Source of the DNA: Chryseobacterium hagamense
Lineage (GTDB): Bacteria; Bacteroidota; Bacteroidia; Flavobacteriales; Weeksellaceae
Assembly: GCF_007991455.1 (NCBI RefSeq)
Contig: NZ_BJYJ01000002.1
Location: forward strand, 62,001-126,000
Direction of reading: 5' to 3'
Length of the DNA: 64,000 nucleotides
Every line of letters starts with the position of its first letter. Within the stretch, counting starts at the first letter, position 1. The notes under the pieces are model-generated. The model ran no database searches, was not told where the DNA came from, and was given only the letters and a program-made list of their open reading frames with translations. Both the position numbers and the translations under genes were made by a program. Positions 5,502-7,130 of the stretch are shown piece after piece.

Positions 5502-6023
5502 ATGTTAAAGGATTTCAAACCGGTTTTGGGCATTTTGCTGCGTTTCATCATCATTTACCTGGTGCTGCTTTTTGCTTATCAGTTCTTTCTGAACTGTTTT
5601 CAGGGAAGCGGCCTTGATCCTTTTTCCCGGATGGTTGCAGAGCAGGTGAGCGGTATCCAGAATTCCATCGGCTTCCCTACGCAACTGTACGATGATGTAA
5701 AAGGCGAACAGGTATGGTTTTATGTAAAGCGGGAATATGTAACGCGCATGGTCGAAGGCTGCAATGCCGTATCGGTCATGATTCTTTTTGTGGCCTTTGT
5801 TTTTGCTTTTTATAAAGGTTCCGGGACTTTTCTTTTTGCACTTACCGGGTTAATCCTGCTGTATGTGATGAATCTGCTCCGGATTGCAGGCTTAAATATT
5901 GTTATGGCCGATTACAAACAATACGGGAAAATTTCACATGATTTTATTTTTCCGGCGATTATTTACGGAACGGTAGTGGCCCTGTGGCTGATCTGGATTA
6001 AATTTTTTGCCCTGAAAAGATGA
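5502..6023 (+). CDS. xrtF: Exosortase family protein XrtF
   Basis: A 173-residue polytopic inner-membrane protein with the exosortase/archaeosortase catalytic triad: Cys87 in VEGCNAVSVM, Arg127 in MNLLRIAGLN and His146 in ISHDFIFP, each at the edge of a membrane helix. Exosortases are transpeptidases that cleave C-terminal sorting tails of exported proteins. This short version, with its partner gene directly downstream, matches the flavobacterial XrtF type. The next gene overlaps it by 4 bp (ATGA), so the two are translationally coupled. No protein with a recognisable exosortase sorting tail is encoded nearby; the large secreted proteins here carry T9SS tails, which PorU handles. Confidence 0.9.
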   Translation: MLKDFKPVLGILLRFIIIYLVLLFAYQFFLNCFQGSGLDPFSRMVAEQVSGIQNSIGFPTQLYDDVKGEQVWFYVKREYVTRMVEGCNAVSVMILFVAFVFAFYKGSGTFLFALTGLILLYVMNLLRIAGLNIVMADYKQYGKISHDFIFPAIIYGTVVALWLIWIKFFALKR

Positions 6024-6460: not shown

Positions 6461-6482
6461 AAAGCATTTTTTTTAATATTCT
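6451..6482 (+). other. Perfect A+T hairpin at the end of the xrtF operon
   Basis: AGAATATTAAAAA and its exact reverse complement flank a 6-nt loop and cover the stop codon of the exosortase-associated gene. There are T's inside the structure but none after it. It may protect the 3' end or act as a weak terminator. Confidence 0.45.
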
Positions 6483-6589
6483 AAAATTATCTTTTATCCA
6501 TATGCTTTTAAGTGTATAATGCTATCTGCATATGCTAACATGGTATATCATATTTCTAATTAGTATTTAGAATTCATTTTAAAAAAGTT

Positions 6590-6620
6590 TTAAAAAAAAT
6601 GTCGTCAATTATTTGACGAC
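6590..6620 (-). terminator. Terminator of the GG-leader peptide gene
   Basis: On the minus strand the 8-bp stem GTCGTCAA / TTGACGAC with loop ATAA is followed by eight T's, 18 nt after the peptide's stop codon. It supports the small gene being a real transcription unit. Confidence 0.85.
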
Positions 6621-6638
6621 AGATAAAATGTTATAATA

Positions 6639-6848
6639 CTAGTAGCAATATCTATTACAAATTACAATACAAAAATGAGGACTATTAGGATCATCAAGAT
6701 CTGTAGTAGGAGAGGATGGGTCCATCTCACATTGAGATTTTGAGCTATAGCATTTTGTCATACTGTTCCAAGCATTTATACATTCAGGAGTATAACCACC
6801 CTTAATTGATTTTAATCCTTCTCTGGAAAGTTTTTTTAAGTTTTTCAT
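6639..6848 (-). CDS. Bacteriocin-like peptide with double-glycine leader
   Basis: A 69-residue peptide. I start at the ATG giving MKNLKKLSREGLKSIKGG, a textbook GG-type leader of the kind common in Chryseobacterium, and not 15 codons upstream. Cleavage after GG would release a 51-residue mature peptide with six cysteines, two of them in a C-terminal cluster (CIVICNRYC); three disulfides or a metal site are possible. A strong terminator follows, so it is monocistronic. No ABC transporter with a C39 peptidase, modification enzyme or immunity gene is adjacent, so export must use machinery encoded elsewhere. Antimicrobial activity is unproven; signalling is an alternative. Confidence 0.8.
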   Translation of the reverse strand: MKNLKKLSREGLKSIKGGYTPECINAWNSMTKCYSSKSQCEMDPSSPTTDLDDPNSPHFCIVICNRYCY

Positions 6849-7130
6849 AGTTATGTAATAAATTTTGTAAAATATTTTCCTACTCTTTGTCAAGCTTTTC
6901 GGATACCGCTTTAATTTGTACTAAAATAATAAATTTTTCAATACGATGTGAAATTATTAAAATTTTTGTATAAATAATTTAATATCATTTTAAATTTTTT
7001 TAAGATGTTTCATTATACTGATTTTCTATTAGTAAAAGTTACATGAGTCTAATGAAATTTAATGTGGATATTATAAAACGAGTTAAAATTTTTTGCAACT
7101 TACAGGTAGATTTTTAGCAACTATAATATT
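6849..7130. other. A+T-rich region upstream of the peptide gene
   Basis: 282 bp, strikingly A+T-rich, between the GG-leader gene and the CDF transporter gene. It must hold the peptide's promoter, but I cannot single out a convincing -7/-33 pair. No coding frame. Confidence 0.5.

What the first reader, a model, noticed from the sequence alone, without database searches (positions are those of the whole stretch)
6590..6848. Orphan six-cysteine peptide with double-glycine leader
A terminator-bounded gene encodes an 18-residue GG leader and a 51-residue mature peptide with six cysteines. No C39-type transporter, maturase or immunity gene is adjacent. Such orphans could share one exporter and be signals, toxins or metal-binding peptides.
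Basis: partly seen in the sequence, partly recalled or inferred. Interest (0 to 1): 0.5.

Follow-up and report, generated by a model that had tools for sequence, protein, structure and literature searches.

The report
Stray cargo of a peptide exporter
A small bacterial gene encodes a cysteine-rich peptide tagged for export; related bacteria often keep its relatives beside an export pump, and here it sits alone in a foreign-looking insert, apparently one of dozens of scattered peptides that could use a single pump and a single disulfide-making enzyme.

Summary
The leader matches NCBIfam NF047798 above its cut-off. The genus is Chryseobacterium by its relatives.
New findings: (1) 29 of 42 family members lie 79-687 bp upstream of a C39-ABC exporter, in operons that also hold a VKOR-DsbA fusion and HlyD (8 of 11 loci listed). 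(2) The window's assembly shows one C39 exporter, on another contig, one close copy of the fusion, and 28 leader hits. (3) Across 118 genomes: leader and fusion 109, neither 8, fusion only 1, leader only 0. (4) Core Cys counts are even in 57 of 58 peptide clusters, and Cys losses come in pairs: disulfides. (5) The 5' UTR holds a DUF805b RNA; 7 of its 8 genomic copies precede GG genes. (6) The gene sits in a ~670-bp, 24% GC insert; 26 of 26 testable relatives have no GG gene there.
Function (antagonism or signal) is untested.

The parts
6639..6848 (-). GG-leader six-Cys peptide gene (69 aa plus stop)
6795..6848 (-). double-glycine leader, 18 aa, NF047798
   Evidence: 36.1 bits, cut-off 23.5
6642..6794 (-). 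predicted core peptide, 51 aa, 6 Cys, computed pI 4.5
   Evidence: the cleavage site is inferred from the GG motif
6877..6912 (-). DUF805b RNA element (RF02914) in the 5' UTR
   Evidence: 47.4 bits, gathering 35.6; the only Rfam match at gathering score in the 64-kb window
6921..6928 (-). candidate Bacteroidota -7 box (TATTTTAG) just upstream of the RNA element
   Evidence: inference by eye from the upstream sequences listed; consensus recalled
6600..6621 (-). intrinsic terminator downstream of the peptide gene
6461..7130 (.). low-GC insert (23.9% GC) that carries promoter-like box, RNA element, gene and terminator
   Evidence: 0 of 26 testable relatives have a GG gene at this site; the exact ends are not determined
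5502..6023 (+). flank: exosortase family protein XrtF
   Evidence: TIGR04128
6020..6460 (+). flank: exosortase F system-associated membrane protein
   Evidence: TIGR04127
7131..8129 (-). flank: cation efflux (CDF) protein
   Evidence: PF01545

Best explanation
The gene is a displaced copy of the cargo of a Chryseobacterium GG-peptide export system. Inferred path: it is transcribed from its own promoter with a DUF805b hairpin near the 5' end of the mRNA; the leader takes the precursor to the genome's one C39-ABC exporter (contig C68), which cuts after GG and, with HlyD, exports the core; the VKOR-DsbA fusion (contig C40) makes three disulfides, most likely C1-C5, C2-C6 and C3-C4. The product is one of about 28 different disulfide-rich peptides that could use this machinery. 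The most likely role is antagonism of other microbes (bacteriocin-like); this last step is the weakest. Shown here: gene, leader, RNA element, insert, exporter and fusion genes, co-inheritance, Cys parity. Inferred: cleavage, export, oxidation, pairing, role.
For: Leader model above cut-off. 29 of 42 family members lie 79-687 bp upstream of a C39-ABC start; 8 of the 11 named loci listed show fusion, GG gene(s), exporter and HlyD in a row (Pfam names from L077). Own genome: fusion at 78% identity, exporter with the C, H and D of the C39 site in place (triad recalled), start of the HlyD gene. Leader versus fusion in 118 genomes: 109 both, 8 neither, 1 fusion only, 0 leader only; Fisher p 1e-11 without correction for kinship. 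27 of the 31 genomes with exactly one C39 match carry 1-50 leader hits, median 17. Cys parity: 57 of 58 clusters even, while for six control residues 34-50% of clusters are even. The fusion's Cys174/186, Cys253/256 and Cys365/368 are invariant in 24 of 24 sequences; its domains match solved VKOR (Z 14.6) and ScsC (Z 15.7).
Against: No transcript, peptide or activity data. No immunity gene found next to it. The core is acidic (pI 4.5, charge about -3), unlike many membrane-active bacteriocins. The own operon is split over contigs C40 and C68, so linkage of fusion and exporter in this genome is inferred from relatives, and the assembly gap could hide another copy. Three of 42 members have a Cys pattern (1,3,4,6) that does not fit the proposed pairing; their alignment is uncertain, and the two patterns that fit come from groups of close relatives, so they may be only two events. 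Leaderless G128 has the fusion; leaderless G052 has a strong C39 match (1.8e-35) without the fusion. In three genomes the fusion is partial or broken (G037, G101, G126) though leaders are present. No orthologue at the site exists for a selection test.
Confidence: 0.65

Rival explanations
1. Same export route, but the peptide is a signal (pheromone or colony-level cue), not a weapon.
For: Acidic, very variable cores, no immunity gene found, dozens per genome, and a 5' RNA element shared by a subset, which suggests common control.
Against: No receptor or regulator gene is seen in the gap or as a direct neighbour. Some peptides that carry the same RNA element in other species resemble cystine-knot toxin families: Toxin_12 in 5 of 82 and Conotoxin in 2 of 82 at E<=0.01.
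Confidence: 0.2
2. A decaying stray copy with no present function, left by insertion of a DNA piece between two convergent genes.
For: Found at this site in the own genome only, of the 27 with both flanks read; low GC insert; the GG gene in the own operon slot on C40 has leader and core in different frames.
Against: The copy here keeps an open frame, all six Cys, leader, RNA element, promoter-like box and terminator. Leader plus upstream DNA is up to 77% identical to other loci over 172 bp.
Confidence: 0.13
3. A thioether or radical-SAM modified RiPP (lanthipeptide, TIGR04149 type) whose maturase is encoded elsewhere.
For: TIGR04149 gives a weak match, and some DUF805b-linked peptides in relatives match TIGR04149 (8 of 82) or class I lanthipeptide leaders (6 of 82) at E<=0.01.
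Against: 14.1 bits against a cut-off of 25. Even Cys counts are not expected when Cys pair with Ser/Thr or backbone carbons. The three L077 operon proteins annotated are VKOR-DsbA, C39-ABC and HlyD; further neighbours were not annotated.
Confidence: 0.04
4. Metal-binding peptide that uses Cys thiolates.
For: Six Cys; the neighbour is a cation efflux gene.
Against: The neighbour is convergent and present without the peptide in relatives. A co-inherited oxidase and pairwise Cys loss argue for disulfides.
Confidence: 0.04

Closest known systems
NCBIfam NF047798 'bacteriocin-like protein' (leader_Chryseo)
   Same: Leader domain matches above cut-off; the window peptide is a member by leader.
   Different: The model covers only the 18-residue leader; its entry line as shown names no exporter, oxidase, RNA element or core family.
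Class II microcins (microcin V type, with C39-ABC, HlyD and TolC; recalled)
   Same: GG leader, small Cys-containing core, C39-ABC plus HlyD in the genome.
   Different: No adjacent exporter or immunity gene; many cores per exporter; a VKOR-DsbA fusion in the operon of relatives; activity untested.
Prochlorosins / synechococsins (passages read in PMC10783134)
   Same: Many precursors scattered over a genome and served by solitary machinery; biological function unknown.
   Different: Those are lanthipeptides made by a ProcM-type enzyme; here the evidence points to disulfides and a disulfide oxidase.
Rfam RF02914 DUF805b RNA
   Same: The 5' UTR element scores above gathering.
   Different: No paper that links this RNA to GG peptides came up in the library searches made; the paper recalled as describing it is not held.
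NCBIfam NF047792 CCPGW family putative bacteriocin
   Same: Shared leader type; other RNA-linked peptides match it (25 of 82 at E<=0.01).
   Different: The window peptide scores 21.6 bits against a cut-off of 80.

Membership tests
NF047798 leader_Chryseo | whole-protein score above curated cut-off | tested here: met
   36.1 bits vs 23.5
GG peptide of a C39-ABC / HlyD exporter (class II microcin-like) | double-glycine leader and small core | tested here: met
   18 + 51 aa
GG peptide of a C39-ABC / HlyD exporter (class II microcin-like) | C39-ABC exporter and HlyD in the same genome | tested here: met
   contig C68; the HlyD gene is cut by the contig end and was named by likeness of its start to the L077 protein that Pfam calls HlyD_3
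GG peptide of a C39-ABC / HlyD exporter (class II microcin-like) | exporter gene adjacent | tested here: not met
   flanks are XrtF-associated and CDF genes
GG peptide of a C39-ABC / HlyD exporter (class II microcin-like) | dedicated immunity gene | tested here: inconclusive
   no further ORF of 45 aa or more wholly inside the gap; GLPGLI proteins sit by other GG genes of this genome, role unknown
GG peptide of a C39-ABC / HlyD exporter (class II microcin-like) | antibacterial activity | not testable with these tools
   needs bench work
disulfide-bonded secreted peptide | even, pairwise conserved Cys | tested here: met
   57 of 58 clusters even; of 20 family members with losses 17 lack C3 and C4 or C2 and C6 together, 3 do not
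disulfide-bonded secreted peptide | oxidised state | not testable with these tools
   needs mass spectrometry
RF02914 DUF805b RNA | score above gathering | tested here: met
   47.4 vs 35.6 bits
RF02914 DUF805b RNA | covarying stem | tested here: met
   two stem pairs change on both sides among 88 distinct elements, 0 of 5000 shuffles as good; the outermost candidate pair is not supported (45 of 88 paired, 966 of 5000 shuffles as good); elements were chosen by the Rfam model, which leans towards pairing
TIGR04149 rSAM-modified RiPP | score above cut-off | tested here: not met
   14.1 vs 25 bits
PF10439 Bacteriocin_IIc | score above gathering | tested here: not met
   12.4 vs 27.1 bits
NF047792 CCPGW | score above cut-off | tested here: not met
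   21.6 vs 80 bits
C39-like domain at the N-terminus of the VKOR-DsbA fusion (leader binding) | homology to PF03412 | tested here: inconclusive
   best Pfam match in two divergent proteins but below cut-off (14.4 and 12.6 vs 22 bits); hhalign probability 1%; the fold search barely tested this part

The most novel reading that the evidence does not exclude
Chryseobacterium runs a dispersed arsenal of disulfide-rich, partly knottin-like secreted peptides: dozens of variable cores behind one conserved leader, one C39 exporter and one dedicated VKOR-DsbA oxidase, with a shared 5' RNA hairpin on a subset. Single genes spread as compact promoter-RNA-leader-core-terminator cassettes into gaps between convergent genes, so that new payloads plug into existing export and folding machinery.
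Probability: 0.4. Interest if true: 0.7.

Novelty: new variant of a known kind. Interest (0 to 1): 0.47.

Why it matters
It turns an apparently orphan small ORF into a testable part of a genus-wide secretion system: one exporter deletion should abolish dozens of peptides and one oxidase deletion should leave them reduced. It also gives the DUF805b RNA a concrete set of target genes, and offers a natural source of disulfide-rich peptides that one machine appears to export and fold.

Tried and rejected
C34 C39 hit as a second exporter: rejected; it is the C-terminal domain of a 789-aa protein in which Pfam finds no ABC domain.

C39-like N-domain of the fusion: an hmmsearch did not run on any sequence (the helper step failed) and counts for nothing; hhalign E 0.05, probability 1%; left as inconclusive. 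The VIA list (50 rows) showed no C39 chain, but that part of the model was barely tested.

Fold of the peptide: AlphaFold mean pLDDT 70.5 for the best of five models, 50-63 for the others; no Foldseek match in the PDB at E<=10. Nothing is built on this model.

Mobile carriers: no match of the peptide in 72,556 plasmid or 50,697 phage records at E<=0.01.

Transposon-like ends: only short repeats at the insert, so no mechanism of insertion is claimed.

Regex classes: 68 of 121 elements were called GG, but 10 of these are by eye Sec-signal proteins (some DUF6520-like), and about two dozen of the 48 'other' carry GG, GA or GS leaders of other types (the own C63 gene among them); the HMM count (46 of 82) is preferred.

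Literature: Chryseobacterium with double-glycine leader, VKOR with C39 and bacteriocin (20 of 53 listed), DUF805 with RNA motif (10 of 31 listed), DUF805 alone (8 of 8), Chryseobacterium with bacteriocin, disulfide and leader peptide (4 of 4, among them a DUF692 RiPP paper, PMC10214503, that mentions Chryseobacterium), VKOR with peptidase C39 (10 of 25), GLPGLI (3 of 3), double-glycine with Flavobacteria and C39 (2 of 2), VKOR with bacterial disulfide formation (2 of 2), prochlorosins (8 of 25). No listed title or abstract start described this system. Passages only were read of PMC10352776, PMC3140520, PMC4307334 and PMC10783134. The library lacks most subscription papers.

Full report
What is there. 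The minus strand at 6639-6848 holds a 69-codon ORF: 18-residue leader MKNLKKLSREGLKSIKGG and a 51-residue core with six Cys. The leader scores 36.1 bits against NF047798, cut-off 23.5. A 9-bp stem with a T run follows at 6621-6600. A DUF805b RNA (RF02914, 47.4 bits, gathering 35.6) lies at 6912-6877, 28 nt before the ATG, and is the only Rfam match at gathering score in the 64-kb window. A TATTTTAG box at 6928-6921 may be the -7 promoter element (by eye, consensus recalled; sequences).

The gene is in an insert. It lies between the convergent genes for an XrtF-associated membrane protein (TIGR04127) and a CDF protein (PF01545). The CDF search covered 58 genomes and matched 36, all of the genus; loci were returned for 30, the own one included, so 29 relatives were read and 6 were not. 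In 26 of the 29 both flanks were found: none has a GG gene between them; the gap, measured from the end of the protein match, is 18-243 bp in 25 and 691 bp in one. In the other 3 the XrtF-associated gene was not found within 1.5 kb; one regex hit there is spurious by eye. In the own genome the gap is about 670 bp at 23.9% GC, against 40.4% and 46.5% in the flanking genes and 41.6% in the window. Of the three nearest relatives (CDF protein 96, 96 and 93% identical) two have 18-19 bp there and one 243 bp. At DNA level the part with leader, RNA element and promoter matches other loci (up to 77% over 172 bp); elsewhere in the insert only three short matches of 25-43 bp at E 1e-4 to 4e-4 were seen.

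Homologues are exporter cargo. In 8 of the 11 named loci listed (L077, L078, L079, L082, L085, L086, L087, L090) the order is: ~505-aa fusion, GG peptide(s), 730-aa exporter, in most of them more GG peptides, 432-aa HlyD; L080 ends at its contig end, L081 and L083 lack the operon. Pfam names (VKOR, Thioredoxin_4, Peptidase_C39 with ABC, HlyD_3) come from L077. Of 42 distinct family members picked by the motif GG[IYF][TS]xEC from all held loci, 29 have an exporter start 79-687 bp downstream and 13 do not; of the 13 one is the window's, one ends 152 bp on at its contig end, and most have only about 1.3-1.5 kb of DNA held.

The machinery in this genome. A 78%-identical fusion lies at C40:25326-26828; the exporter frame is open at base 1 of contig C68 and is followed by a GG peptide and the start of HlyD. 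The exporter keeps DCG, HF and DP of the C39 site. The two contigs do not join in the assembly. A diverged paralogue of the fusion (25%) lies on C4 and fragments on C64. After the C40 fusion comes a GG gene whose leader and core lie in different frames, then a GLPGLI protein. The only other C39 hit is not an exporter. NF047798 gives 28 hits at E<=0.01, 23 over cut-off. No other place in the assembly matches the window core well: the next hit, 30 bits, covers residues 1-37, and a 12-bit one residues 1-57.

Co-inheritance. In 118 genomes, 109 have both leader (E<=0.01) and fusion (E<=1e-30), 8 neither, 1 the fusion only (G128), 0 the leader only (Fisher p 1e-11, not corrected for kinship). One of the 109 (G029) has only a sub-cut-off leader hit (E 0.008), and in three the fusion is partial or broken (G037, G101, G126). 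C39 alone is less telling: 115 of 118 have a hit. Of the nine leaderless genomes three have no C39 hit (G056, G117, G137), four only a weaker one near 1e-28 (G011, G098, G143, G154), and two a strong one (G052 without the fusion, G128 with it). Of 31 genomes with exactly one C39 match, 27 carry 1-50 leader hits, median 17.

Disulfides. Among 242 distinct GG peptides found by regex in all held loci, 235 have an even, non-zero core Cys count, 1 has none and 6 are odd; of 59 single-linkage clusters 57 are mostly even, 1 odd and 1 without Cys; for P, D, N, S, T, G 34-50% of clusters are even. In the 42-member family, 22 have all six Cys, 9 lack C3 and C4 together, 8 lack C2 and C6 together, 3 show C1, C3, C4, C6 in an uncertain alignment. 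C1 is in all by the selection motif. The first two patterns imply C3-C4 and C2-C6, hence C1-C5; each comes from close relatives and may be a single event. The fusion's six catalytic-type Cys are invariant in 24 of 24 sequences, and the predicted domains match VKOR (4nv2, Z 14.6, rmsd 2.6 over 130) and ScsC (5idr, Z 15.7, rmsd 2.8 over 160) (model pLDDT 70.5).

RNA element. In the own genome 8 copies exceed gathering; 7 stand just before a GG gene (one of them the frame-shifted one, one with a GS leader) and 1 before another ORF; chance would give about 0.001 such neighbours. So about a quarter of the leader genes carry it. In 16 genomes 121 copies above gathering were read. Of the 85 fetched as short stretches, 82 gave a downstream ORF; 46 of 82 match NF047798 at E<=0.01, and others match CCPGW, TIGR04149, class I lanthipeptide leader, DUF6520, phage tail collar or caspase models (a protein may match more than one). 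The remaining 36 copies were not given to these HMMs. So the element is common on GG peptides but not exclusive to them. Anchored on CCGAAAA (107 of 121, 88 distinct), two stem pairs vary with compensation: A-T 54, G-C 18, T-A 10, C-G 3; and C-G 59, A-T 13, G-C 7, T-A 3; no shuffle of 5000 equals either. The middle pair is nearly invariant and the outermost candidate pair is not supported. The Rfam model chose the elements, which favours pairing.

Reading. The peptide is best seen as displaced cargo of a genus-wide export and oxidation system. Scattered precursors with solitary machinery have a precedent in prochlorosins (PMC10783134, passages), which are lanthipeptides. What seems new here, within the searches listed, is the disulfide oxidase, the RNA element and the empty-site evidence. 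Whether the peptide kills or signals is not known.

Noticed in passing
L150:10881-12019 (own contig C40 end): In the own operon slot after the VKOR-DsbA fusion a GG gene has leader and core in different frames, followed by a GLPGLI family protein (TIGR01200).
   Followed up: partly
L153:5571-8199: 789-aa protein with a C-terminal C39 domain and no ABC domain found, followed by an 84-aa ORF: looks like a delivered C39-protease effector with a possible immunity partner.
   Followed up: no
L154:5904-8537: Diverged VKOR-fusion paralogue (25% identical) with its own GG/GA-type gene and a GLPGLI gene: a possible second cargo set.
   Followed up: partly
L152 (own contig C64): Fragments of a VKOR-fusion-like gene, one with stops, a GG gene, and short ORFs that look like an IS630-type transposase (name recalled).
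   Followed up: no
L256, L273, L274, L298, L260, L270, L275, L311: DUF805b RNAs in other species stand before caspase-domain, phage tail collar and unnamed proteins, so the RNA may mark a wider set of genes.
   Followed up: partly
L308, L319, L327, L328: GG/GA peptides with a CCPGW motif; in the scanned set 5 of 82 match Pfam Toxin_12 and 2 of 82 Conotoxin (which members was not shown), suggesting bacterial cystine-knot peptides.
   Followed up: no
L174 (G009), between the same two flanking genes: A different ~690-bp stretch fills the same convergent gap and by eye encodes a helix-turn-helix-like ORF, so the gap may accept insertions repeatedly.
   Followed up: no
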